Positions 1 to 20,340 of a stretch of DNA of 64,000 nucleotides are shown one piece after another. Numbering within the stretch: the first letter of the stretch is position 1; each line of letters begins with the position of its first letter. The translations under genes and the position numbers were made by a program. The DNA lies in NCBI GenBank assembly GCA_019321725.1, contig CM033118.1, forward strand, positions 8,272,071 to 8,336,070. The letters run 5' to 3'. This DNA is from Paulownia fortunei. Lineage: Eukaryota; Streptophyta; Magnoliopsida; Lamiales; Paulowniaceae. Below the pieces are notes generated by a model that made no database searches, had not been told where the DNA came from, and saw only the letters and a program-made list of their open reading frames with translations.

Positions 1-1486
1 AAAATTCCAAGAGTCCCACTCTTGGTATTCTATATCTCTTTTTGATTGGTTGAAATATATTTTGGTTTATCTAAACTTTTTTCTGATTTTATTCCTTTCA
101 CATCTTCCAAAGATATTTAAGGTTTCCCAAGAATTCTAAATTCTTGAATTTTCATTATTTTTCAACCACCTTCATGGGCCTCTCTTCTAATGGGCCTTTG
201 TGAATTGGGCTTGGACTCAAAATTAAATTATACAATTAATCCAATTAATTGTCTCAGCCTAAATTCAATTAATTAATTCCATCTAATCTACCTAATCAAA
301 TTAGACCCAATTAAATAATTCAATTATTTAATTGAGTAAATTAATTTATGGACTACACAATTGATTTGATCTAATCAAATAATTATTTCACTCCAATTGG
401 GTTTCCTAATCTTATTAGGTCCAATTAAATAATCTAATTATTTACTTGAATAATTAATTCAACTATTTGAATTAATTTAATCCGAAATTAATTAATCTCC
501 ATTACTTAATTGGATCCAACCCCTTGGATTAATTCTTAAATTAAAAATATTTCATCTCAAATTATGAGTGACCCTTTAACAAGTTTGAAAAACACCTAAC
601 AAGTGTATCATGACTACTTAGACTTAGGTGAAATAGTGAGTGAACTTATTTCAATTACAAGTATCATATACGTAAGGTCTTTCCATCAACTAATCTCCTG
701 ATTGAATATAGGGCATGGATTAATAGTCGAAACCATAATTGCTCAATAACTATGATTCCATTTCAAGTTTCAATGGCTCTTGACGAATTATTAGAAAACC
801 CCCATCTAACGTTCATCCTAGCTTGGCAAAGGACTTATGAGTCATGAACTATGAAAATATAAGAGATTCACTTATGCTGCCAGATAAGTGACGAATCTTT
901 TGTTGACCACTTATTAACCTTTATACATGTTAATGCCACATCCAACGTATTTCCTTTGTGATTGTCAGACAATTAGAAGATACATCAAAATGAAACATAA
1001 CATGTACAAGGTTACTATGGTACCTCAAGTCAAAGGACTAATCGTGTACTATCGTAATATGGAAATTCTTATTTCAACAAACATGTTTCCAATTAAGAGT
1101 TTCCAGTGGGATTGTTCAATGTACTTGTTCCCTAACAATTACCTACATACATGAACTAGCGTCACTACGCCAATGTCTATAGAGTGAGACATCCTCCTCA
1201 TGCGAGCATGCATCGTATGTGCGAGTCTATTGGGCTATTCGATGTCCCCTCTAAAAAAACCCTAATTTAAGATCAAAACCATAGAGGTATATTCTATGAT
1301 CACCATCAAATGCGTGACCATGCCCTATAGCTAAGTTTGGTCTAGGGACTTTATCTAATTACAAGATGTAATTAAAGATAAATAAATTTACCTGTTTTAT
1401 TAATATGATTTGAAAAAGATTATTTTACAAATACAAGAGTATAAAGGACACACAATCTACTTGGCATGCCGGGTACTGCTCTAACA
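1..1486 (-). repeat. 3' LTR of C1 (partial, cut by window edge)
   Basis: On the minus strand the LTR begins TGTTAGAGCAG at 1486, immediately after a purine-rich tract. Base 1 corresponds to about base 18806 of the 5' LTR, so roughly 450 bp lie outside the window. The two LTRs align along their length but differ by indels: a block of about 120 bp present near 19390-19510 is missing here, and about 65 bp near 1198-1262 are absent from the 5' LTR. The insertion is therefore not recent. No gene is present; the open frame at 927-1154 is chance. Confidence 0.85.
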
Positions 1487-1560: not shown

Positions 1561-1942
1561 CTATGCTAGAGGTTTGGTCAGCAGGTCTACCATATTTTTT
1601 GCCAAAGCGACTCTATCTACTATAACATTGTCTCTACCAAAGATCTCTTTGATCAAATGATATCTCCTCATGATGTGCTTAGATCTTTGATGAGATCTTG
1701 GCTCTTTTGCTTGTGTAATAGCTCCATTGTTATCAGAGTATATTACTATAGGATCAACAACGGATGAAACCACACCCAACTCTTGGTTGAAGTTCCTTAT
1801 CCAAACAACTTCTTTTATTGCATCATCACATGCAATAATATATTCAGTCTCGGTGGTAGAATTTGCAGTCATCTCTTACTTGGAACTCTTCTAACTGACC
1901 GCACCACCGTTTAAGGTGAATATGTATCCGAATATTAACTTT
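1561..1942 (-). pseudogene. Copia RNase H domain, C-terminal end of C1 pol
   Basis: The reading frame at 1561-1872 matches the C-terminus of Copia pol: a TTETEYI segment, then YSDNNGAI, a SHQRSKHI block and the closing VDLLTKPLA. These are the RNase H landmarks, including the acidic residues of TETEY and SDNN. RNase H removes genomic RNA during reverse transcription inside the virus-like particle. The stop lies about 75 bp before the LTR. The domain itself is well preserved over 100 residues, but it is separated from the RT by stops near 1873-2160. Homologous pieces occur at 48868-49050 (C5) and 60084-60340 (C6). Confidence 0.85.
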
Positions 1943-2519
1943 GAGTCATCTATATCGGATTGAAAACTAGAATAAGTATGGTCTTCTAGTTTTAGTTCTT
2001 CGCAGTTGTATAAAGAAAGATATCCTTAGTCCTTCTCAAGTACTTCAAGATCATTTTTACGGCCTTCTAGTGTTTCTCAACTAGATTGGACTAATATCTG
2101 CTTATGACACTCAGAGCATATGTGACATCTGCGGCCTTGTATGTAGTATACCATACATTATGCTTCCTAGACGGATGCATAAAGTATGCAGGTCTTCCTT
2201 TCCCTCTCCTCAGGAGTCTTATGAGACATTGCCCTTGAGAGAGAAACACCATGACTCATTAGCAAGAATTCTTGCTTGGATTCCTCCATGCTAAACCACT
2301 TTAGCATTTTGTCTATGTACGTGTATTGGGATAGTCCAATTATCTTTCTTGACCTATCTCTATAGTTCTTTCTTCCAAGAATAAAGGATGCTTCTCCCAA
2401 ATCCTTCATGGAGAATTGATTAGACAACCAATTCTTAGTTGACTACAATATCCCTACATCATTCCCAATGAATAGGATATCATCAACATATAGCAGAATA
2501 AATGTTAATATATTCCCAC
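1943..2519 (-). pseudogene. Copia reverse transcriptase, C-terminal half (C1)
   Basis: The frame at 2167-2427 carries FSMKDLGEASFILG, SQYTYIDKMLKWFSMEESK and KTPEERER, the palm/thumb region of Copia RT. The catalytic YVDD is intact at 2479-2490. The domain stops abruptly at 2514-2519, where G1 is inserted; the rest of the RT resumes at 13892. Stops between 1943 and 2166 separate it from RNase H. The RT copies element RNA into DNA in the particle. Confidence 0.85.
2515..2519. repeat. Target-site duplication of G1, left copy
   Basis: CCCAC directly precedes the TG that opens the left LTR of G1, and the same five bases follow its closing CA at 13887-13891. A perfect 5-bp duplication is typical of LTR-retrotransposon integration. 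Confidence 0.85.
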
Positions 2520-4128
2520 TGCTACAACTTTAAGTTTGCAAACCCAAATGCACGTTGTATTAAGTAATACATTTCTCATGAGTTCGAGGTCGATCACAGA
2601 GAAGTTGTTTGAAGAATTCAAGTTTATATTTTTAAAAAAATTAGATTTATGTGAATCAAAATATATGAACAATTAATGTATGCTATAACTAAAGAAGAAC
2701 CAAAGTAATAAAAGTACTGAGGATTAGGGATCCACTTTTAAGTTTTGGAGAGAGAAATAATTATTTATTCTTTTACTTCTACTAATTACCACAATTAGAA
2801 TTCATGCATAATGAAGGTTCCAATGGGAAGATATTATCAAATAACTCATGCAATAAGGTAATTATGATATTGTCTTACCATTGCAAATTATCTCTTAACG
2901 CCAACACTTATTTATGAGATCAACCATTTATAAATATCTTTATCAACAACAAACCAAGCTTTCACATTAGCAATTGGTGGTTAAAATTGTACAATAAGCT
3001 AAATGAACCCAAGTATTTATTGTACCATTAGAGATACATAAATCAAGAATCATCACAAAACAAACAAGATTTAGATCAAAACTCAAAAATAATAATACAA
3101 CATACTTAAACATTTTCTACTCTTATAACCATTCGTCTTCATCCATTAAGAGATTCATCCCTTTTTCTCAGTAAAATGAAATTTAGAAAGACATAATAAA
3201 AGTAGCAAAGACTAAAAATATAAGAGAAACTAGAGAATGTATTTCTATTACTACTAGCAAACTTACAATACTAGAAAATATATAAACTAGAAAACTTAGC
3301 CTAAAAAAACCCTCTACCCCCTGTCTCTTACAAGCTTAATACATGGCCTATTTATAATACTTGTAGTAAGCTAGAGGCCAAACAAATAATGGAGTGGTTA
3401 ATCAAGTGGTATGCTAGTTGTCAAGAGTTGGTAAGTTGTTATACCAAGTTCTCACCCACTGAATTGAATTGCATTGTTCGGTCAAATACAACTAGATTTT
3501 GAATATGCGTAAAGAATCAAAATTGTAGATCTTTCGGTACTGATATATTTTCATATTTCTTTTGTCAAATTGGCGGTCAGATGAAGGAGATATGGTCAAA
3601 TTACCGAGTCATGTCCAAGAGCCATCCTTTAATAGTAGTAACAACTTGTAGCCTATGTTTTTACCATTTTGATACATTTTCTCACCATCTTATCTTCTGT
3701 AAAGTTGTTTATTTACCTCTTATGTATAACATATCTAAATTTTAGCCCAAAATAAATTTGGGCTCAAGAGATATAACCTAATTGATAAAATAAGTTAATA
3801 TTGGGCTAAACTCTGATTCGAATTTTAGTGATCCATTTTGTGCAACTATTTGGACAAATTTTATGCTATAATTAAAATTGAATTGGGCTAATCTTCCAAT
3901 AAAAAATTATACAACTATCTCTTGGCTTTCAAATGAAATAAACTTCAAGTCCATAGGGCTTTTGATTATAAAGTTATGCTCAAATTACAAAAACTGCACA
4001 AGTTTGGAAACATGCTTCTATTTATTTTCTAACACAAATTTTTTATAAAATGATAATATTAACAAGAAATAAAGCAAGAAAAGTATAAAGGATTTGATAC
4101 AAAAATATGTAAAAATATGCACTTATCA
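2520..4128 (-). repeat. 3' LTR of G1 (full length)
   Basis: Starts TGCTACAACTTTAAG and ends GCACTTATCA, giving 1609 bp with TG...CA ends. It aligns with 12897-13886 at both ends. Bases about 2613-3236 have no counterpart there, so the 5' LTR has lost about 620 bp. Scattered substitutions separate the copies. No coding content seen. Confidence 0.88.
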
Positions 4129-5850
4129 AATTCTCCCATACTTAACCCTTGCTTGTCCTCGAGCAAGCCTAAAACAAACCTAAACTAATCTACTTTTATA
4201 GGAAATCACGATTGCATTTAGCATATGGAAATAGCCTTTAAACCCCTAGGTGGTCTATAGAGGATGAGTTACAGTCTTGTGAAGGTTTCCAGCAGTAATA
4301 CCACAAACATTTATAATAACTATCTTTTAACTTTTATTCTTATGAAGCAACAAAGTAATATGGAAATAAAATCAAACAAGTGTTGAGTTTAACTCTTAGT
4401 CATTCAAAAGTCAATACATTTTTACAATAAGCATACTCAAGTGTGTGTGTGGATAGTTAATGTCAACAATGAAGAAACTATGCATGCTTCAAATAAATGA
4501 ATTCTCATAAAACCTTACAAAAACCATCACCTAATCTCTAATAGAAAAGTTAAACATCATAGGCTCTTCATTTGGTGCAAATCTCCACTACACTAGAGGC
4601 ACCATACAAAATCAAAAGGTTTTCAAAAAAGGTTGTAATGGGGGCAAAGGATAGTGATATAGCTAAGAAATAAAAGGATAAGATGCAACAAAGGTTCTAA
4701 AAACTTTATGGAATTAGAGACAGAGTTTATCGATGAAAAATTCTCAAACTCCACAAATTTCAATACTGGGTCTATTGTTATTGAATTGGATCCTTCTTAT
4801 TCATCTTTCAACATCTTATTTTTAGTTGCAACTCGCAGCACTTTGCAAAATTTTTTTTCTATTTTTTTTTTGTGAAGGGAATCTCCCCACACTTATCTTC
4901 TATTCCAACCTGAATTTCTTTTGTAAGTTCACATAGTCAATGGAATGTCTCTTAAACTCCAATCATTTTTAGAACAAGGGTTGTATAATAGTGTATTTAG
5001 GCTAGGTAAAAAGATATGATTACGAAAAAAATATATTTATTTATTGAAAAGCTCAAATTGGTTCATTAGGGGGATGTTCTCTTGAAACATCATATGGGGA
5101 ACAAGATAATTTGGCAATGGTGCTAGAAAGCCCAATGCCTTAATCATTTTCCTAGTGGTGCACTATCAGTCATTCGCCTCGATAGACCAAAAGTGAAAGT
5201 TCTAATACTCAACCCTACATATTGAAGATCCAAGTGATGATTAGAGCAAGGGCATAAGAACTATCTATTTTGACATTATTGCATCACACTGAATAACATA
5301 ACTATTTGTGCAAAAAAAAAATTTGAGTATAATTATCGCAAAAATATATTAACCAAATAACAACATCAAAGTCCAAAACAACACCTATCATCAATCAAAC
5401 CACATTATTCATGCTTAATTTTAATCATTGAAGTTGGAATAATCTTTACGACTCAAAAAAAGTAAAAATAATTGGTAATTCACAAATATTTGTTAAAAAC
5501 TTCACAAACTTGCCATGTTATGTATAAAATAGGGATGCGTTTCAAGAGTGTTACAATTACCCTTTACTCCGCCACCATTTTTCATGATTTCAATGGACTC
5601 ATCAGAAAACATGCTTGATTTTTTTTTTAATTAGAAAAACACACAACAAACACACAAGTCATGATATCAACTATCCCTCCCCCCAACCTAATCGAGACAT
5701 TGTCCCCAATGTAAAAAATAGATAGGAAAGTAGAGTTTGAAAGATATCACCTGAAGTGTGGCTAAAAAAAATAAAGCTGAAACAACAAACAAAAAAAAAA
5801 ACACATACTATTAGATAAAATCATTAACAATAAGTATCAGAGACTGAGAG
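4129..5850 (-). other. 3' untranslated region of G1
   Basis: No convincing coding content. Two landmarks seen in plant Gypsy 3' ends are present on the minus strand: the ACATTGGGGACAATGT palindrome followed by a G-rich GTTGGGGGGAGGG run (about 5676-5715), and a GAGGACAAGCAAGGGTTAAG segment ending in a purine-rich tract next to the LTR (about 4129-4165). The second is the likely 3' polypurine tract. The first may be an internal one. The cargo genes end just upstream of the first landmark. Confidence 0.7.
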
Positions 5851-6489
5851 TCAAATGCAATCTACATTTTCGACCATTGTTCCTGTTGGCCCATCCACAT
5901 TGGCCAAGGCTGGATTACGTTCTGGCACATATGTTAGAAGTTGATCAATTAGTTACTCAGATGTTGGAGCATAAATGAGGATTCTTCTTGCATATAGTGA
6001 AATAAAATCTTTTTTCACAGCATGATCTACAAAAGATAACAAAGTATCATAAAAATCATTAACATTAAGAATACCTATAGGTTTTTGGTTAATGTTGAGT
6101 TGTGCCCAAGAGACAATTTGGAATAATTCCTCCACTGTACCAAAACCGTAAGGTAGAATGATGAATACATCCGCATTGTTTAACATGTTAGGCATTCTGT
6201 CTTAAATATGTGACACTTTTAGCTCATCTCCAATGGTTATACTTGTGATATTCTGTACTATTAAAGATTTTGGGATAACTCTCAGAACTTTGACACCTCC
6301 TACATAAGCAGAAACAACAACACTCCCCATTAACCCCAAACTGTCTCCCCCATATACTAAATAAATTTTTCTCTCTCCTAAAGTTCTACCAAGGTTATTG
6401 GTTGCCCCTATAAACTCACCATTTTTTTAAAGATTGGATCCATAAAAAACACAAATGTAATTGAATTTGCGAGTTGAAGAAACTTTCAT
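5851..6489 (-). pseudogene. LOG: LOG-like cytokinin riboside 5'-monophosphate phosphoribohydrolase, captured in G1
   Basis: LOG enzymes release active cytokinin base from its nucleotide. Read from ATG at 6489, one frame of 212 codons reaches TGA at 5851-5853, about the full length of plant LOG proteins. Visible family features: ICVFYGS near residue 12 (family CVFCGS), LVYGGDSLGLMG near 43-54, VIPKSL near 71, an Arg in the segment of the conserved HQRK motif, DVFIILPYGFGTVEEL (family PGGYGTxEE, here the first Gly is Tyr), VSWAQLNINQKPIGILNV, then LLSFVDHAV and FISLYARR. Spacing between motifs matches the family with no gap, so the introns of plant LOG genes are absent. Three in-frame stops (codons 21, 96, 179) and no frameshift. 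It lies in the sense strand of G1 between integrase and the 3' landmarks. Not functional as it stands. Confidence 0.9.
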
Positions 6490-6650
6490 TTTTTTTATTT
6501 TTTTTATTTTTGAAAATAAGTTGTACAAAAATAGAGTGAGTACGATGATATTTATTGAGCTGTGACTAGGGAATGCATTTATTGCATGTCTTTTTCTTTT
6601 ATCACAAAGGTTGAAAATAAGGACACACATAAAATTTAAAAATTACCTAC

Positions 6651-7289
6651 TTACATGTGAATGTACATGTTGTTGTGATTGTGGCTCACATCTTCCTTTG
6701 GTTTTACGTCCAGTAATGGCTTAAACGCCCTTTATGGGTCAAGGATATGCTTTCCATATAGTTTTCTTATAAACTGCCAAATAGGGTCTTTTAATGTCAA
6801 ATTCCCAAAACTATAAAGCTCATATTCATTTTAAAAATGATCCCATAAATCAAGAATTGCACGTTGTACTAATCCACATGAATGCATCTCAAGAGTCAAT
6901 ATAATGTGATCTAAAGATTCCTTACTCAATCCATCCATAATGAATTTAAGTTTATCTTCTTGATTTTTAAAGACCATTCCTAAAGAACGACACTTTTTGT
7001 TGCAAGTCCATCTAGCACAATTATGACAAACTTTCATTTTTTTCACCCTTCATTTTTTTGAATATGTACTTTTACCAAAACCAGGCATGTATCTAGTAAG
7101 CAAATCTAGAAACTCATGTGAAAACTCACCTGCTCTTACCTTTGCTTCAATTATCCATCATATGTCCTATGGGATGCCTTTGTGCATAAACATCCTCAAT
7201 CTTTCAATCCTGATTTTATAAATTTTTAAAATTGCATTTTTAGGATGAAAATGAAATCGCTTTTTGAGAGTTCGAAAAATATCACCCAT
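6651..7289 (-). pseudogene. Unrecognised 212-codon reading frame with Cys cluster, next to LOG in G1
   Basis: From ATG at 7289 a single frame runs 212 codons to TAA at 6651-6653, broken by stops at codons 41, 44, 80, 153 and 186 but with no frameshift. I do not recognise the family. Visible: a basic N-terminus, a segment EFSHEFLDLLTRYMPGFGKS (about 55-74), a cysteine cluster C-x2-C-x4-C-x3-C at codons 88-100 (VCHNCARWTCNKKC) that could bind zinc, then acidic/hydrophobic stretches and LKDPIWQFIRKLYG (about 166-179). It follows integrase by about 310 bp and precedes the LOG frame by about 160 bp in the same sense. It may be a second captured host fragment or an old accessory ORF of the element. 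Confidence 0.55.
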
Positions 7290-7597
7290 TTTAAAAAGAA
7301 CAAGAAAAGAGAATGAGAAAAGTAGAAAAAATTTGTACAAAGATTTCAGTTATTTGGAAAATGACAAGTTTGACTTTAATAGCCACGGAGTACCATTATC
7401 CGCCACTTAACCGGAAAAAGAAAAAAAAATAAAAAAAAGAGAAAAAAAACTTTCAAAACAAATAAAGTGAGAGAAAATAAGTATATACAACACTAATCAT
7501 AACAAGGATTAAAAAGAAAAAAGAACTTCCTCTTGTGAAAATTGATTTTCTAGAAATGGTTTAACTCTTTGTCCATTTACTTTGAATATGTTACCAT

Positions 7598-8062
7598 TTA
7601 TAGGATTGTCAATCTCAATCGCCCCATAAGAATATACTTTTTTACAACAAAATGACCACTCCACCTTGATCTCAATTTTTCAGGAAACAAATGCAATTGA
7701 GAATTATAAAGCAAAACCTTTTGACCAACCTCAAATATTTTTCTTGAAATTTTATTATCATGAAAATCTTTGATTCTTGCTTTATAAATTTTAGAATTCT
7801 TATATGCATCATTTCTCAGTTCTTGAAGTTCATTGATTTGAAATTTGTGTAATTTTGAAGCTTCATCAAGGTTGAAGTTAAATATTTTAATTGCCCAATA
7901 AGCTTTATGTTCAAGTTCAACAGGTAAATGACAAGGTTTTCCATAAACTATCCTACAAGAAGACATGTCTAATGATGTTTTGAAAGTAGTTCTATATGCC
8001 CAAAGTGTATCAGTAAGTCTAAGAGACCAATCTTTATGGTTTGGGTTAACTGTTTTCTCCAA
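7598..8062 (-). pseudogene. Gypsy integrase, C-terminal part (G1)
   Basis: This 154-residue frame begins just after the third catalytic position of the integrase. It shows [45 protein letters not shown], a helical [19 protein letters not shown] segment, and the DNA-binding tail [24 protein letters not shown]. Integrase inserts the cDNA into the host chromosome. The frame ends a little past the SRWSGHF block. Bases 7290-7597 downstream are AT-rich with no coding signal. Confidence 0.85.
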
Positions 8063-8755
8063 AATTTATTTTATCTCCCTATTTGTAAGTTCAACTTGTC
8101 CATTTGTCTAAAGGTGATAAGGGGTTGCAACTTAATGTATGATTTCATATTTCCTCATTAAAGTTCCAAAAACTTTGTTACAAAAATATTTTCCCCATCA
8201 CTGATAATAGATTTAGGAATGTCAAATTGATTTAAAATATTTTCTTTCAAAAATTTTATTACTATTTTGTGATCATTGTTTTGACAAGGAATTACCTCGA
8301 TCCATTTTGAAACATAATCAATGGAAACCAATATGTAAAAAAAAAAACAAATAATAATGAAAATGGCACAATAAAATCAATATCCCAACAATCAAAGATT
8401 TCAATCACTAGGATATGGTGTAGGGGCATCATATTTCTCTTTGAAGGGATCCTAACTTTTGACAATTTTCACAACTTTTGTAGAAAGTGTAAGTGTTTTT
8501 GAAAAGTGTTGGCCAATAAAATCCACATTGTAAGATTTTTGCAGTAGTTTTCTTTACAGAAAAATGACTACCACATGCTTCTGAATGACAAAATTTGACA
8601 ATATTACCTATCTGATTGTCAGGCACACATCTTCGAAAGATTTGATCCAGACAATATTTGAATATGTATGGATCATCCCAATAAATTTTTTTAACCTCAG
8701 TCAAAAACTTCTTTTTATCTTGAGAGTTCCAATGCGATGGCATCTTTCCTGTCAC
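8063..8755 (-). pseudogene. Gypsy integrase, zinc-binding and catalytic core (G1)
   Basis: The frame at 8429-8755 carries the H2C2 zinc-binding segment (FCHSEACGSHFSVKKT ... YKSCENCQKLG). Past a break, 8063-8428 reads in pieces as the catalytic core: SIDYVSKWIEV with the first Asp, SIISDGE with the second Asp, and an NGQVE block with the Glu, the last in a shifted frame. The core is thus recognisable but frameshifted and carries stops near 8145. Confidence 0.8.
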
Positions 8756-8894
8756 AAGAAATTAACAATGTCAGCAAACCAAGGTAAAATAGAAACATTA
8801 AATAGTTGTTCATCAGGGAAAGTGTCATTAATAGGTGTAGTTTGAAATGAGTCATCACAAACAAGTGTCGGCAAATGATCAGCCACTACATTCT

Positions 8895-9272
8895 CTACTC
8901 ATTTTTTTTATCTCGAATCATAATATTAAATTTCTGGAGTAAGAGAATCCACCTAATCAGTCTTGGTTTGACATCTTTTTTTGACCAAAGATATTTTAAA
9001 GCTGCATGATCACTGAAAATAACAACTGGTGAGCCAACAAGATAAGATCGAAATTTGTCCAATGTAAAAAGTATAGCAAGTAATTCTTTTTCAGTTGTTG
9101 TATAATTCAATTGAGCACCATTTAAAGTTTTACTTGCATAGTAAATAACATATGGTCTCTTATCTTTTCTTTGTCCCAAGATAACTCCAACAACATAATC
9201 ACTAGCATCACATATTATTTCAAAAGGTAAAGTCCAATATGGAGGCTGCATGATTGGAGCAGATGTAAGCAT
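8895..9272 (-). pseudogene. Gypsy RNase H domain (G1)
   Basis: A 125-residue frame with the Gypsy RNase H signature: FEIICDASDYVVG with the first Asp, YTTTEKELLAILFTLDKFRSYL with the Glu, and VIFSDHAALKYL with the next Asp, followed by KPRLIRWILLLQKFN. All three catalytic acidic residues are present. It is split from the RT by stops at about 9273-9335 and from integrase by 8756-8894. Confidence 0.88.
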
Positions 9273-9335
9273 GCTTTTAAGCTGAACAAAAGCATTTTCA
9301 CAATTTTCAGTCCATTCAAAAATAGTATTTTTTTA

Positions 9336-10383
9336 TTAGAAGATTACACAAAGTTTAGATATTATACTAAAATTTTTGATAAATCTTCTATAAAAACCAG
9401 TATGTTCTAAAAATAATCTAACCTCCTTCACAGTCTTTGGTGTTGGCAAATTGGTAATTAACTCAATTTTAGATTTGTCAACCTCAATACCTTTTGATGA
9501 AATAATGTGTCCAAGAACAATACCAGTTGTTACCATGAAATGACATTACTCCCAATTGAGCACAAGATTCTCTTCTTCACACCTGATCAAAATCTTTTTT
9601 AAATAGATAGGCAATCATCAAATGAATTACCAAAAATAGAAAAATTATCCATGAAAACTTCAAGAAAACATTCAACCATATCACTAAAAATGCTAAGCAT
9701 GCATCGTTGCAATGTAGCTGGTACATTACATAATCTAAAATGCATCATTCGACATGCAAAAGTACCAAAGGACATGAAAAAGTTATTTTCTCTTGGTCTA
9801 CAAGTGCAATTATAATTTGATTATACCAAGAATATCCATCTAAAAAGTAATAAAATTCGTGTCTCGCAACTCTTTCTAAAATTTGATCCATGAAATGTAA
9901 TAGAAAATGATATCTTCTAGTAACTGAGTTGAGTTTCCTATAGTCAATGCACATTCGCCAACCAGTAACAGTCCTAGTTGGAATTAATTCATCATTCTCA
10001 TTCTTGACTACAATAACTCCAGATTTCTTAGGTAGAACTTAAGTAGGACTTACCCATTTGCTATCAGAAATAGGATAAATGATTCCATTATCTAAGAGTT
10101 TAATGACTTCATTTCTCACTACTTCATTCATATTAGGATTTAGCCTTCGTTATATTTCTCTAGAAGGTTTAACATTTTCCTCTAGATAGATGTTATGTAT
10201 GCAAATGAAAGGATTAATATCTTTAATATCAGCAATGGTCCATCCTAAAGTATTCTTATGCATTTTCAGAGTTTCGATCAACTTACCTTCTTGAGATGTA
10301 TGGAGTTTGGAAGAAATTATTACTGGAAAAGTATCATTCTCACCTAAGAAAGAGTATTTCAAATCAACTAGCAAAGGTTTCAA
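9336..10383 (-). pseudogene. Gypsy reverse transcriptase (G1), catalytic site changed
   Basis: Three frames of one RT: 10150-10383 (HKNTLGWTIADIKDINPFIC, the N-terminal approach), 9745-9954 (CIDYRKLNSVTRRYHF, DQILERVARHEFYYFLDGYS, fingers/palm) and 9336-9536 (GIVLGHIISSKGIEVDKSKI ... GFYRRFIKNFS, thumb). Between them the catalytic loop reads FMDN at 9644-9655 instead of the usual F/Y-x-D-D, so the second Asp is lost by one GAT-to-AAT change. Stops and frame breaks lie between the pieces. The enzyme is dead here. Confidence 0.88.
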
Positions 10384-10649
10384 ATAAACTACGGAAGCTT
10401 TAATACTTGATAGAATAGATTTTACTGTTGATGATGAAAGTTCTTCGAACCTTGGCTTCCAAAAATATTTTTTTTGTTAATGCAAAAATTCAGAGATAGT
10501 ATTAGTGTGTGCCTTTCTACAAATACTTTCACTTTCGAACAAGTCTCCAAAGAATCTAAAGAGTTAGTGGTAGTAAAATATTCATGAACAAGTTCCTCAA
10601 TTTAATCCACTTTATGTACTTCGACATCTTCTGCAGGTTGCTTACAAAC

Positions 10650-11297
10650 ATTAAACACATTTAGTTCCAAAGTCATATTTCCAAATGATAACTTCAAAAT
10701 ATCATTCCTATAATTGATCAAAGCATTTGAAGTTTCAAGAAAAGGATGACCCAAAATGATAGGAATTTATGTATGTGTTTGTGCAACAAGCTCTGTGTCC
10801 AAAATAATAAAATCAACTAGAAAGTAAAACTTATCGATTTAAAACAAAAGTTGTTTTAAGTTCTCCCAAACCTAACTGTTCATAAACAAAGAAAGGTAGA
10901 AGATTTACATTAGCACCAAGATCAAGCAAAGCACGTTCTATTCTAGTTTTTCCTATGATACATGAAATGGTTGGACAACCTAGATCTTTGTACTATGGTG
11001 GAGTGAATTGTTGAATAATTGAACTAACACTTTCAGTTAAAAATGCCTTCTTTTGTACATGATGTTTTCTTTTGATTGTACACAAATCTTTCAATAATTT
11101 GGCATAGGGTGGAACTTGCTTGATTGTATCCAACAATGGAATATTAATCTTCACTTGTTTAAAAATTTCAAAAATTTCAGCATTTGAGTTTAATTTCTGA
11201 GTTGCTTATAATCTTTGAGGAAATGGTATTGGAGGTAAATATTTTTCTTTTTCATCATTTTCACACTTACCTTCATCGTCAAGACTATTTCCATTCT
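10650..11297 (-). pseudogene. Gypsy aspartic protease region (G1)
   Basis: Fragmented coding similarity between gag and RT. The active-site block reads LLDLGANVNLLPF, with DLGA at 10912-10923, the form used by plant Gypsy proteases in place of DTGA/DSGA. Before it is a segment like the gag-protease linker of such elements (FKQVKINIPLLDTI), which starts just after the gag frame. Several stops follow the active site. The protease would cut the gag-pol polyprotein. Bases 10384-10649 are a decayed protease-RT spacer. Confidence 0.7.
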
Positions 11298-12643
11298 TCA
11301 TTTTTGGAGGTGGATAACTTTCTCCTTGGGATGAATAGTCTTATCAATAACTTTTTCATTCTGAAGAGTTGTGACTGAATTAGTCTCCTTGACTGAATTT
11401 TCACCTGAAGAAGAAGCATGACACTGAGTGGAAGGATTAGGTTGAGGTTGAGTAGGAAATTTACCTTTTTCATGAGTACGCAAAGAAGTTGTTAGTGTTG
11501 AAAGTATGCTTATCTCATTGATAGCTTGTGAACTCTGATTATTGATGTTTGGTTGTTCATGCATAAATGCTTGAAAAGTCTCCTCAAGGGATTTTGTATG
11601 TGGAGCTGGATAAGAATGAAATTTTGGTGGTTTTTGTGAATGCAGCGGTTGGGCAAGGTTATCATCTCGCCAACTGAAATTGGGATGATTTCTCCATTGT
11701 GGATTGTAAGTTTCAGAATATGGAGAATGGAAAGGTTTTTTGAATGTGTTCATGAAATTTGCTTGTATTGGAATGTTTGGACATTCATTGGTGGAGTGCC
11801 CCAAAAGCTCATAATTACTACAAACTTCTTCATCTTCCACATATTTGATTTTCTTTACTTTTTTAAGTTCCATGGCTTTAACTTTTCTTGTTAAACTAGC
11901 AAGCTTAGCATTTAGATTATCTTCTTGGCTAAGGTAATATTTTTCTTTATTACTATTAGCAAGATTAGATCTAATAGAACCTTCGGAAGAATTAACACTA
12001 TGCCATGATTGAGAGTTTTCTGCCAAATGATCTAGATATTCTAGGGCTTCATCATGTTCTTTATTAAGAAACTCACCATTACTCATTGTTTCAACAAATT
12101 GTTATGTTTTAGGAGTTAAACATTCATAAAAAAAACTAATTAAGTGTCATTTTTCAAAACCATGATGTGGGCATGAATTTAACAAATCTTTAAATCTTTC
12201 CCAACATTGAAAGAAAGCTTCATTAGAATTTTTAAAAAAAATTGAATTGTCTTTTCAAAGCATTAGTTTATGAATTGGAAAGAATTTTTTCAAAACTTCA
12301 GCTTGCATTTCTTGGCAAGTGCCAATTGACATAGGTTTTAAAGAATTAAGCCAGTTCCAACTGACCTAGGTTTTGAAGAGTTAAGCCAAGTTTTTGCTTT
12401 ATCTTTTAAAGAAAAAGAAAATAATTTGAGCTTAACAATCTCATTTGTGCAAGTTTGATCATCAAAAGTGGCACATACTTCATCAAATTCTTTTAAATGC
12501 AAGTAAGGGCTTTCAGAGTCTAAACCATAGAAATTAGAAAGTAAAGGGATCATACTTGACTTGAATCGAAAGTTATTTGTATTTAGAGAAAAAATAAAAC
12601 AAGAAAGAGAAGAATTTCTAGGAGGTTGCAAGTAATAATACAT
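11298..12643 (-). pseudogene. Gypsy gag (G1)
   Basis: N-terminal frame 12338-12643 contains SSMIPLLSNFYGLDSESPYL, LKEFDEVCATF and LFSFSLKDKAKTWLNS, the plant Gypsy capsid signature. C-terminal frame 11298-12086 (262 residues) continues with EALEYLDHLAENSQSW and a zinc knuckle CSNYELLGHSTNEC, whose second Cys is Tyr. The frames are separated by a tandem repeat of about 37 bp at 12325-12375 and by a stop near 12118. Gag forms the particle and packages RNA. The true start may be slightly upstream of 12643. Confidence 0.85.
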
Positions 12644-12873
12644 GGTACATACCTATTGATTCTCATTTTCATCCTAGACACTTTCATTTTCAACTATGGT
12701 GGAAGTGTATGGAGATGATTTAAACAAATTTCTAAACAAAGTTTCAGAATTATTTCTAACTAAACATTGAGAATTATGATTACGATACCATATAACCATA
12801 TATCCATAAAGAAAATAAATAAACTATATTTACAAAGGAAAAATATTAATAAACCTGAATACTTACCTTGCCT

Positions 12874-12891
12874 TCCCCGACAACAGCTCCA
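12874..12891 (-). other. Primer-binding site of G1 (tRNA-Asp-like)
   Basis: Minus-strand TGGAGCTGTTGTCGGGGA lies 5 bp inside the 5' LTR. It is a degenerate match to the Asp-tRNA primer site known from Athila-type plant Gypsy elements. The changes look like C-to-T and G-to-A transitions plus one C-to-A. The leader continues to gag at 12643. Confidence 0.75.
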
Positions 12892-12896
12892 AAACT

Positions 12897-13886
12897 TGCT
12901 ACAACTTTAAGTTTGCAAACCCAAGTGCAGGTTATATTAAGTAATAAATTTTTTGTGAGTCCGAGATCGATCCATAGGGAAGTTGTTTGAATAATGCATT
13001 TCTATTACTACTAGCAAATTTACAATACTAGAAAACATACAAACTAGAAAACTTAGCCTAAAGAAACCCTCTACCCCTCCTCTATTACAAGCTTAATACA
13101 TGGCCTATTTATAGTACGTGGAGTAAGCTAGAGGCCAAACTAATAATGAAGGGGTTAATCAAGTGGTATGCTAGTTGCCAAGAGTTGGTAAGTTGTTACA
13201 CTAAGTTCTCACCCACTGAATTTAATTGTATTGTTCGGTCAGATACAACTAGATTTTGAAGATGTGTAAAGAATCAAAACTGTAGATCTTTCGTTGCTGA
13301 TATATTTTCATATATCATTTGTCAAATTGGCGGTTGGATGAAGGAGATATGGTCAAATTATTGAGTCATGTCCAAGAGCCATTCTTTAACAACAACAACA
13401 ACTTGCAACCTATATGTTTACCATTTTGACACATTTTGTTACCATCTTGTCTTCTGTAAACTTGTTTATTTACCTTTTGGGTATAACATATCCGAATTTC
13501 AGCCTAAAATAAATTTGGGCTCAAGAGATATAACCCAATTGGTAAAATAAGTCAATACTGGGCTGAACTCTTATCCGAATTTTGGTGATCTATTTTGTGC
13601 AACTACTTGGAGGAATTTTATGCTATAATCAAGACTGAATTAGGCTAAGCTTCCAACAGAAAAGTTGTACCACTATGTCTTGGCTTTCAAATGAAATAAG
13701 CTTCAAGTACATAGGGCTTTTGATCATGAAGTTATGCTCAAATTACAAAAAACTGCACAAGTTTGGAAACATGCTTCCATTTATTCCCTAACATAAAATA
13801 TTAATAAAACAATAATATTAACAAGAACAAAGCAAGAAAAGTACAAAGGATTTGAAACAAAAATATGTAAAAATATGCACTTATCA
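12897..13886 (-). repeat. 5' LTR of G1 (internally deleted)
   Basis: 990 bp with ends TGCTACAACTTTAAG and GCACTTATCA, matching 2520-4128 at both ends. Compared with that copy it lacks about 620 bp after GAAGTTGTTTGA, near 12991. Point differences occur throughout. The target duplication CCCAC follows at 13887-13891. Confidence 0.88.
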
Positions 13887-13891
13887 CCCAC
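13887..13891. repeat. Target-site duplication of G1, right copy
   Basis: CCCAC follows the closing CA of the 5' LTR and repeats 2515-2519. The C1 RT sequence resumes directly after it, as judged by the uninterrupted homologous stretches in C4 (near 29990) and C6 (near 60950). Confidence 0.85.
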
Positions 13892-18352: not shown

Positions 18353-20340
18353 TATTCCGGATCCGATGCAATCTTTAATGATCTCACAATTTCCAATGAT
18401 TGTAGTAAAAATAATTACAGTTTCAATTCATACCTTTCCATGCACTTCTACTGGCGTAGGGTATGAAGCAATTAATTGCTAGCCCCTTTTCTGAATTTAG
18501 TTTATAGGAATCCATGTATCTCCACTCTAAAGTGGTCCACACTTTGAGCAAGAACACAAAATTAAAATTTCGCTAGCAATTTTGATTTCTTTTCTAACCT
18601 AGTTTGTGGAGTGTGTATAAAGAGTATTAATTCTTCTAATCAACTTGTGATAAAAGAATTAATACTTAAAATAAAAGATGGAATTTTTAGTGGGAAAAAA
18701 GTTGAATGAAGAAATAATTTTTCTTCTCTCTCTCTATGTGGCTAAAAATTAGAGGGATTAAAATTCTCTCTATAATTTTCGGTGATGATGTTTAAATAGG
18801 GGACTCAAAATTCCAAGAGTCCCACTCTTGGTATTTTGTATCTCCTTTTGATTGGTTGGAAGATATTTTGGTTTATCTAAACTTCTTCTAATTTTATCCC
18901 TTTCATATCTTCTAAAGATATTTAAGGTTTCCCAAAATTCTAAACTCTTGACTTTCCATCATTTTTCGATCACCTTCACGGGCCTCTCTTATTGGGCTTT
19001 TGTGAATTGGGCTTGGACTCAAAATTAAATCCTATAATGAATCAAATTAATTGTCTTAGCCCAAATTCAAGTAATTAATTCCATCTAGCCCACCTAATCA
19101 AATTAGGCTCAATTAAATAATTAAATTATTTAATTGAGTAAATTAATTAAATTAATTTATGGACTACACAATTGATTTGATCTAATCAAATAATTATTTC
19201 ACTCCAATTGTATTCCCTAATCTTATTAAGTCCAATTAAATAATTCAATTACTTAATTGAATAATTAAGTCAACTCCTTGAATTAATTTAAGCTCTATTT
19301 AATTAATCTTCATTAATTAATTAGATCCAACCCCTTGAATCAATTGCTAAATTAGAAATGTTCTATCTCAAATTGTATGTGACCCTTTAGGTTCATAACT
19401 AAGCTATCAGCGGGCATGCAACATTTACAACTTATGAATAATAATAATTATTCTGATTAGTTAATCCGCTTGAAATTAACTCCTTAATTTCAAGAACCTT
19501 ACAAGTCATGGGAAACACCTAGCAAGTGTATCATGACTACCTAGACTTAGGTAAAATAGTGAGTGTACCTATTTTAATTACGAGTATCACACACGTAAGG
19601 TCCTTCCATCAACTAATCTCCTGATTGAATTTAGAACATAGATTAATAGTCGAAATCCTAATTGCTCAATAACTATGATTCTATTTCAAGTTTTAATGAC
19701 TCATAACGAATTGTCAGAAAACCTCCATCTAACATTCATCCTGTCTTGGCCAAGGACTTCTGAGTCATGAATTATGAAAATAAAGGAGATTCACTTATTT
19801 TGCCAAACAAGTGATGAATCCTTTGTTGACCACTCATTAACCTCCATATATACCATGCAACATCTAATATATCCCCTTTGTGATTGTTAGGCAATCAAAA
19901 GATACATCAAAATAAAACACAACATGCACAAGACTATCATGTTGCCTCAAGTCAAAGGACTAATTGTGTATTATTGTAACATGGAAATTCTTATTTTAAC
20001 AAACAAGTTTCTAATTAAGAATTTTCAATGGGCCTATTCAGTGTACTTGTTCCCTAACAAGCACTCGCATACATGCACTAGCATCACTATGCTAATATCC
20101 ATGTAGCGAGATATCCTCCTTGACTCAGAACTAATTTAAGACCAAAGTCAAAGAGGTATATTTCATGATCACCATCAAATACGTGACCATGCCCTGTGGC
20201 TAAGTTTGGTGTAGGAATTTTATCTAATTACAAGATGCAATTAATAATAAAGAAATTTACCTATTTTATTTATATGATTTGAAAAAGATTATTTTTTACA
20301 AATAAAAAAATATAAAGGCGCACAATCTAATTGACGTGCT
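18353..20340 (-). repeat. 5' LTR of C1
   Basis: About 1990 bp, matching 1-1486 over the shared part. Its inner end lacks the CCCAACA terminus seen in C3 and C4. Its outer end loses homology to the 3' LTR at about 20340, where C2 begins in the opposite orientation. The middle is very AT-rich with many TTAATTAA-like words. Identical at 34313-36300. Confidence 0.8.
18791..18798 (-). promoter_or_regulatory. Putative TATA box of the C1 LTR
   Basis: Minus-strand TATTTAAA follows GTCCCC and lies downstream of the conserved GAGTGGGACTCTTGG block. C4 (29567-29574, TATATAAA) and C5 (53752-53759, TATAAATA) have TATA-like boxes in the same position of the LTR. Confidence 0.5.

What the first reader, a model, noticed from the sequence alone, without database searches (positions are those of the whole stretch)
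5851..6489. A full-length, intronless LOG (cytokinin-activating enzyme) frame carried inside a Gypsy retrotransposon
Seen: 212 codons in one frame with LOG motifs at family spacing (ICVFYGS, LVYGGDSLGLMG, VIPKSL, LPYGFGTVEE, WAQLNINQKPIGILNV), three stops, no frameshift, no intron. It lies in the element's sense strand between integrase and 3' LTR, inside a CCCAC target duplication. Known: plant LOG genes are multi-exon, and LTR elements occasionally capture host cDNA. Inference: G1 or an ancestor picked up a spliced LOG transcript. A retroelement that can express a cytokinin-activating enzyme could influence cell division in its host; that role is speculative. The absence of frameshifts suggests the cargo was recent or maintained before this copy died.
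Basis: partly seen in the sequence, partly recalled or inferred. Interest (0 to 1): 0.9.

Follow-up and report, generated by a model that had tools for sequence, protein, structure and literature searches.

The report
Retrotransposon carrying hormone-enzyme and viral-type genes
In the paulownia tree genome a large family of jumping DNA elements carries two extra genes, one resembling a plant hormone-activating enzyme (likely copied long ago from a spliced plant gene) and one resembling a plant-virus nucleic-acid-binding protein, which would give the element a virus-like kit for steering its host's cells.

Summary
The LOG frame is real, on the minus strand (6489→5851), inside a Ty3/gypsy element with TG…CA LTRs and a CCCAC target duplication. 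In sampled copies it lies between integrase and 3' LTR. The host's own LOG genes are multi-exon. The window copy is old and broken (three stops, late frameshift, PGG read as PYG). LOG-type relatives from Lamiales, Malvales and Malpighiales form one clade apart from the cellular LOGs sampled. They keep the catalytic Glu and mostly the Arg but have lost the otherwise invariant pocket Lys; three Xanthoceras relatives just outside the clade keep it. Cytokinin activation is therefore plausible, not shown. LOG in gypsy elements (Citrus, Populus) is already in print; I found no report of the LOG plus viral-type pair. Selection within Paulownia is weak, and expression is untested.

The parts
2515..2519 (.). 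target site duplication CCCAC (left)
2520..4128 (-). 3' LTR (TG...CA), ~1.6 kb
   Evidence: self-alignment; sequence
5851..6489 (-). LOG-type cargo frame, degraded in this copy (3 internal stops, late frameshift, PGG to PYG)
6735..7289 (-). second cargo ORF: viral-type nucleic-acid-binding protein (Carla_C4-like in open copies), 4 stops in this copy
7598..8065 (-). integrase C-terminal part
   Evidence: no Pfam hit; assigned by position after the integrase zinc domain and by recall of the motif
8429..8761 (-). integrase zinc-binding domain (PF17921)
8895..9332 (-). reverse transcriptase RNase H (PF17917/PF17919)
9745..10038 (-). reverse transcriptase fragment (PF00078 19.3 bits, below cut-off here; 101.8 bits in the open frame of copy L017)
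11298..12101 (-). downstream part of gag (no Pfam hit itself)
   Evidence: in copy L013 this stretch lies between the gag and protease Pfam domains
12874..12891 (-). putative primer binding site starting TGG five bases after the 5' LTR
12897..13886 (-). 5' LTR with ~620-bp internal deletion relative to the 3' LTR
13887..13891 (.). target site duplication CCCAC (right)

Best explanation
The frame is the decayed window copy of a family-wide accessory gene of a Ty3/gypsy retrotransposon in Paulownia, which carries between integrase and 3' LTR a viral-type nucleic-acid-binding ORF followed by an intronless LOG-type ORF that was likely captured long ago from a spliced plant LOG transcript and is predicted to encode a nucleotide phosphoribohydrolase. 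Shown: anatomy, copy number, intronless state against multi-exon host genes, one LOG-type clade, catalytic residues kept, pocket changed. Inferred: the two proteins are made from the element's RNA in the place where retroviruses keep env and accessory genes. The zinc-finger protein would bind nucleic acid and could blunt silencing, as carlavirus proteins do. The LOG-type enzyme would release a free base from a nucleoside monophosphate, most likely a cytokinin-type one, and so would favour dividing, meristem-like cells from which new copies can reach the germ line.
For: Copy number: 150 of 150 scored places (2,486 first-look candidates; the window copy is not among the 150) pass the PF03641 cut-off. 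By my count of that score-sorted listing, 115 of 150 have no stop in the match. Order: in 10 of 10 ten-kb loci chosen as LOG hits, integrase, the viral-type ORF and LOG lie in this order on one strand; RT is seen in 9 of 10, not in L015. In an integrase-anchored sample of 20 of the 150 listed integrase hits, the viral-type ORF is in 19 of 20 and LOG whole or in part in 15 of 20. Host LOGs: 10 of 10 fetched loci are multi-exon. Fold: pLDDT 84, best PDB match AtLOG3 2a33, TM 0.94 by target. Tree: 37 thinned LOG-type sequences against 53 cellular ones, split 98/95 and kept in 100% of bootstrap trees. Viral-type ORF: PF01623 25.4 bits against cut-off 20.9; at E up to 0.01, 32 of 34 aligned members match PF01623 and 31 of 34 PF05515. 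Constraint: 18 stop-free young copies have N:S 46:27 against a neutral ratio of 2.87, 2.15% of simulations as low.
Against: A first count of shared against singleton codon variants showed no purifying selection on LOG (35 nonsynonymous:16 synonymous + 3 stops against 114:47 + 8 stops). The later test is weak and uses copies picked for lacking stops. For the viral-type ORF selection is not significant (24:12, 12.7% of simulations). No transcript or protein was seen. The pocket Lys is lost in the cargo; in CgLOG the corresponding Lys is one of the AMP-site residues whose alanine changes nearly abolished activity (PMC4979012, section 6). Five of 20 sampled copies show no LOG and three only its first 33-48 residues. 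Outside Paulownia, linkage to a retroelement was not seen directly.
Confidence: 0.6

Rival explanations
1. The LOG-type protein is a re-tooled enzyme that no longer acts on cytokinin nucleotides but on another nucleotide, for instance one of the host's own signalling or immune nucleotides.
For: The Lys next to the catalytic Arg is K in 114/114 cellular LOGs but M59/I47/L9/T1 of 116 in the cargo-type set; position 124 is mostly Q or H (86 and 25 of 117) instead of E; position 123 is F in 117/117. In CgLOG the corresponding Lys and Glu are placed in the adenine and prenyl sites (PMC4979012 section 6). Three Xanthoceras relatives keep Lys and Glu, and the two of them put in a tree branch just outside the cargo clade, so the change belongs to the cargo stem.
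Against: Catalytic and phosphate-loop residues are kept, the fold is closest to plant LOGs, and Trp128 of the proposed prenyl site is nearly invariant in 25 cargo-type sequences. I know of no other substrate for close plant relatives (recall).
Confidence: 0.25
2. The LOG-type ORF is a passenger without function, kept only because the elements copy themselves quickly.
For: No excess of synonymous change in shared variants among Paulownia copies; LOG diverges more than the integrase and viral-type segments (2.5% against 1.3% and 1.7%); copies have lost LOG by deletion or truncation.
Against: Length, tail and catalytic residues are kept at 58-69% identity to 26 cargo-type proteins of other plants, some unnamed (residues); N:S is lower than the neutral simulation in young and in old copies.
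Confidence: 0.15
3. A single recent capture of LOG cDNA by this copy or its immediate ancestor.
For: Intronless frame in one element.
Against: Family-wide presence and an own clade outside the cellular LOGs sampled.
Confidence: 0.01
4. The second ORF resembles carlavirus protein only by a shared basic stretch and cysteine motif (convergence), not by descent from a virus.
For: The match is short (residues 66-99 to PF01623), PF05515 is under its cut-off for the Paulownia protein (18.8 against 23), and the finger spacing is C-X2-C-X4-C-X3-C, not C-X2-C-X12-C-X4-C as quoted for a carlavirus in PMC8839810.
Against: 32 of 34 aligned members match PF01623 and 31 of 34 PF05515, best 1.1e-8. The genome-wide control was 0 of 14, a weak control: the 12 genomes named are bacteria and archaea.
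Confidence: 0.4

Closest known systems
LOG-bearing Ty3/gypsy elements of Citrus and Populus (YgdH domain; PMC9289625 section 12, citing Steinbauerova et al. 2011)
   Same: LOG/YgdH domain in plant Ty3/gypsy elements; recalled abstract of the 2011 paper: two Athila-like elements with similarity to LOGL4 in the 3' region.
   Different: Here high copy in Lamiales, paired with a viral-type ORF, an own clade with a changed pocket. The 2011 paper is not held and was not read, so it may hold more than I recall.
Plant LOG cytokinin riboside 5'-monophosphate phosphoribohydrolases (AtLOG3, AtLOG8)
   Same: Fold, GGxGTxEE core, catalytic Arg and Glu.
   Different: Intronless, 43-48% identical to the four cellular LOGs in A2, pocket Lys and Glu replaced, extra KRKLxLxLSL-like tail.
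Carlavirus cysteine-rich nucleic-acid-binding proteins (Carla_C4, PF01623)
   Same: Basic stretch directly followed by four cysteines; Pfam score above cut-off.
   Different: Longer (~185 aa), different finger spacing, carried by a retrotransposon.
2-oxoglutarate dioxygenase (m6A demethylase) domain in Phalaenopsis Ty3/gypsy elements (PMC9289625)
   Same: Gypsy element fixed an extra enzyme domain.
   Different: Other enzyme and other plant lineage.
Retand elements with TRP28 antisense ORFs (PMC11963269, passages)
   Same: Extra ORFs between pol and 3' LTR.
   Different: There antisense proteins of predicted DNA-binding capacity; here a sense-strand enzyme and zinc-finger protein.

Membership tests
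Ty3/gypsy LTR retrotransposon | RT-RNase H before integrase, flanking LTRs, short target duplication | tested here: met
Athila clade | RT/RH/INT phylogeny with Athila | not tested
   no reference RT set at hand; Athila-like by recall of gag and integrase features
Athila clade | no archaeal-type RNase H (which marks Tat, PMC6317226 passages) | tested here: inconclusive
   no second RNase H family hit in the open frames of L013 and L017, but these do not cover the integrase side
Athila clade | primer site not tRNA-Met | tested here: inconclusive
   TGG 5 bases after the LTR; likeness to tRNA-Asp is recalled
LOG phosphoribohydrolase | LOG fold and GGxGTxxE loop with catalytic Arg and Glu | tested here: met
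   (Arg98 109/117; G114, G115, G117, T118, E120, E121 at 95% or more); the window copy itself reads PYG
LOG phosphoribohydrolase | Lys and Glu of the proposed adenine/prenyl pocket | tested here: not met
   K in 114/114 cellular, M/I/L in 115 of 116 cargo-type; E mostly to Q or H. Three Xanthoceras relatives keep both
LOG phosphoribohydrolase | release of cytokinin base from its nucleotide | not testable with these tools
   needs enzyme assay
Carlavirus nucleic-acid-binding protein | Carla_C4 profile above curated cut-off | tested here: met
   25.4 bits against 20.9; 32 of 34 aligned members match at E up to 0.01
Carlavirus nucleic-acid-binding protein | C-X2-C-X12-C-X4-C finger as described for jasmine virus C (PMC8839810) | tested here: not met
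   element has C-X2-C-X4-C-X3-C (sequence)
Retro-captured gene | introns of the source gene missing | tested here: met
   host exon ends at PGGYG|T; cargo continuous there

The most novel reading that the evidence does not exclude
These elements run a virus-like two-gene host-control module: a zinc-finger protein of plant-virus type that counters silencing, and a re-tooled LOG that hydrolyses a host signalling nucleotide (cytokinin or an immune nucleotide). The module has been kept by selection across eudicots, so that an ordinary-looking gypsy element behaves like an endogenous plant virus with accessory genes.
Probability: 0.25. Interest if true: 0.88.

Novelty: new variant of a known kind. 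Interest (0 to 1): 0.62.

Why it matters
If the enzyme works, a retrotransposon family makes a hormone-type enzyme in its host, which bears on how plant elements reach the germ line. It also warns annotators: 'LOG gene' counts in Paulownia, Orobanche, Reevesia and others may be inflated by retrotransposon copies (one search shows Orobanche clusters of 328 and 244 members). The altered pocket, with Xanthoceras relatives that keep the old one, gives a direct biochemical test of LOG substrate choice.

Tried and rejected
One-off capture: rejected. A LOG-less or LOG-truncated subfamily: not excluded. The five LOG-less copies end or are deleted at different places (L045 5038, L055 5483, L050 5592, L051 5708, L048 5835 in L015 coordinates), but the LOG-side ends of the three short ones (L042, L056, L058) fall within 42 bases (5942-5984), as does that of L062 outside the sample. 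Grape Gret1 as host and element: my first guess, dropped after one search gave Paulownia fortunei names on contigs whose lengths equal two contigs of this genome (24664501 = C6, 27090522 = C4; lengths). Relatives in IMG/VR viral contigs: none confirmed, three scans. Structure of the viral-type ORF: pLDDT 57, so no fold search was made. PDB search with it: nothing credible. Antisense ORFs after LOG: not pursued.

Rows dropped: L001-L006 and L008 as duplicates of longer loci; also L067, L068 and L074 from the LOG codon counts (L074 is a duplicate; L067 and L068 are separate loci that my list left out). Of 51 LOG rows in the N:S test, five with broken alignment (L039, L046, L063, L064, L069) and three near-young rows (a stop or too short) were dropped. 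In one search three of 29 viral-type rows (near-young with a stop) and L061 were dropped. The integrase sample skipped unplaced contigs and one rank to fit 20 regions. In one search four of 121 LOG-type sequences (P0014, P0015, P0059, P0063) and six of 120 cellular hits fell to the length filter; three of the four (Xanthoceras) keep the canonical pocket and were looked at.

Full report
What was checked. The element around it runs from 2520 to 13886 on the minus strand and is flanked by CCCAC at 2515-2519 and 13887-13891. Its 5' LTR is shorter than its 3' LTR by an internal deletion, and the two agree at 89.4% over 895 columns and 84.8% over 112. Against an open copy, the window frame loses register near residue 199 and is one base shorter, so 'no frameshift' does not hold.

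Host. Protein hits named Paulownia fortunei lie on contigs of 24,664,501 and 27,090,522 bases, the lengths of C6 and C4 of this genome. I take the host to be P. fortunei (Lamiales).

Family-wide cargo. PF03641 scored 150 of 2,486 first-look places in the genome, all 150 above the cut-off; the window copy is not among them. In my count 115 of 150 have no stop in the match; the list is sorted by score and so leans to intact copies. Ten 10-kb loci chosen from the LOG hits all show integrase, the second ORF and LOG in one order and strand, with RT in nine. To avoid choosing by LOG, I took 20 of the 150 best integrase hits (4,646 first-look candidates) at roughly even steps and read 2.2 kb downstream. 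The second ORF is in 19 of 20 and LOG, whole or in part, in 15 of 20. L045 ends before both ORFs; L050 and L051 end before LOG; L048 and L055 carry deletions; L042, L056 and L058 keep only the first 33-48 LOG residues. The ends of the LOG-less copies differ, but those three short ones end within 42 bases of each other, so a shared truncated form is possible. The simplest reading is that the ancestor of the sample carried LOG.

Intron test. A 39-residue piece of AtLOG3 around the PGG motif finds 15 genome places at 70-86% identity, all ending at query residues 28-33, while many element copies run on to 39. All 10 cellular loci fetched show separate exons (L084 is cut by a contig end). The break at PGGYG|T is clear in L075-L079 and L083; in the others the alignment is gapped or overlaps there. 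The cargo is continuous, as expected for capture of a spliced transcript.

The second ORF. Between integrase and LOG most copies have a sense ORF of about 185 codons. In copy L015 it scores 25.4 bits against Carla_C4 (cut-off 20.9) and 18.8 against Viral_NABP (cut-off 23). Of 34 aligned members (33 picked from the 120 listed homologues, plus L015), 32 match Carla_C4 and 31 Viral_NABP at E up to 0.01. Genome-wide, 23 of 150 scored places reach E 0.001 for Carla_C4, so most copies score weakly with that profile. The basic stretch KKRRAKKMK directly precedes CHICARWTCNTKC, like the nuclear-signal and finger layout described for carlavirus proteins (PMC8839810 and PMC8742542, passages), which those papers call silencing suppressors and symptom or pathogenicity determinants. 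The finger spacing differs. The window copy spans 7289-6735 and has four stops.

Relatives and origin. Beyond Paulownia and a few near-identical unnamed hits, the listed LOG-type hits are 56-69% identical and, where named, come from Rehmannia, Orobanche, Reevesia, Diplodiscus, Populus and Xanthoceras, often in large clusters. Thinned to 37 and set against 53 cellular LOGs (from a profile of AtLOG3 and AtLOG8), they form one side of a 98/95 branch in all bootstrap trees. The Lamiales members group at 100/99 with Paulownia outside Rehmannia plus Orobanche. The cellular set has no LOG5/7-type members that I can name, so the parent LOG is not resolved. The named cargo-type members are Lamiales, Malvales and Malpighiales. 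The Xanthoceras hits were outside the length filter. In a second tree of 37 rows two of them branch between cellular and cargo-type LOGs (92/73), with the cargo clade at 100/98. Outside Paulownia I infer the retroelement context from copy number, from organisms shared, and from one pair of clusters with the same longest contig of 8,723 bases (P0115 and P0128); it was not seen directly.

Active site. Across 117 cargo-type and 114 cellular sequences, G114, G115, G117, T118, E120 and E121 are kept at 95% or more in both, and Arg98 in 109 of 117 cargo-type. The Lys after it is Lys in 114 of 114 cellular and M59, I47, L9, T1 in the cargo type; position 123 is Phe in 117 of 117; Glu124 is Gln in 86 and His in 25. 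The Xanthoceras relatives keep Lys and Glu. In CgLOG, Arg99 and Glu122 are proposed as catalytic, and Lys100 and Glu125 are placed in the adenine and prenyl sites; alanine changes of the AMP-site residues nearly abolished activity, Ser19 excepted (PMC4979012, section 6). So the cargo keeps the catalytic pair and has a changed pocket. Among 51 Paulownia copies Met99 is in 50, Gln124 in 51, Arg98 in 48 and Glu121 in 50. The model of the L011 frame has pLDDT 84 and matches AtLOG3 best.

Selection. A first count found no clear difference between shared and private codon changes in LOG. Against L015 as a fixed real copy, 18 young stop-free copies give N:S 46:27 (neutral 2.87; 2.15% of simulations as low), and 25 older copies give 219:89 with stops counted as N (1.05%). 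The viral-type ORF gives no significant result (young 24:12, 12.7%; old 124:44, 25%). Per-segment divergence over ten copies is integrase 1.3, viral-type 1.7, LOG 2.5, following spacer 2.9, LTR 4.1 percent (the LTR of L016 looks misaligned and inflates the last figure). Constraint in Paulownia is therefore weak; the stronger hint is the kept length and active site between plants, which is not a dN/dS.

Prior art. PMC9289625 (section 12 read, passages elsewhere) reports the YgdH (LONELY GUY) domain in gypsy consensuses of two Citrus species and, below its five-consensus filter, Populus trichocarpa, in line with Steinbauerova et al. 2011, which I could not read. It was the only paper with both YgdH and retrotransposon. 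Searches for carlavirus with retrotransposon (14 papers, 12 listed) and for phosphoribohydrolase with retrotransposon (14 papers listed) showed no title on the pair; these were seen as listings only. The term 'carla' does not occur in PMC9289625 or PMC6317226. Subscription papers are mostly not in this library.

Verdict. A real, family-wide and partly known type of cargo, made more interesting by its viral-type partner and its changed pocket. Function is unproven.

Noticed in passing
window 1-1194 and 18807-20000; 1561-1875 (-): The gypsy element sits between two long similar stretches (80-93% alike in pieces) with a Copia-like RNase H frame next to one, so it is probably nested in an older element; the Copia label is recalled from the motif.
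   Followed up: partly
L015 (G000:C12:9537200-9547199): A young derivative (LTRs 98.6% alike over 1617 columns) shows no gag, RT or RNase H but keeps the integrase end, the viral-type ORF and LOG: a non-autonomous form that kept the cargo.
   Followed up: partly
L069 (G000:C7:15937692): A deletion seems to join the start of the viral-type ORF to the later part of LOG in one open frame of 159 codons.
   Followed up: no
P0014, P0015, P0059 (Xanthoceras sorbifolium): LOG-like proteins in partly doubled gene models keep the canonical pocket; the two tested branch next to the cargo clade, perhaps its nearest known source or an earlier stage.
   Followed up: partly
L075-L078 (contigs C86, C187, C52, C153): Four very similar cellular LOG genes lie on unplaced contigs, perhaps haplotypes or a recent multiplication.
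   Followed up: no
L010-L012, L014, L016-L018, about 700-1160 nt after the LOG start, opposite strand: A stop-free antisense stretch of about 94-120 codons recurs between LOG and the 3' LTR; may be chance in A+T-rich DNA.
   Followed up: no
protein search: Orobanche and Reevesia annotations list very many LOG-type 'genes', likely retrotransposon copies that inflate LOG family counts.
   Followed up: partly
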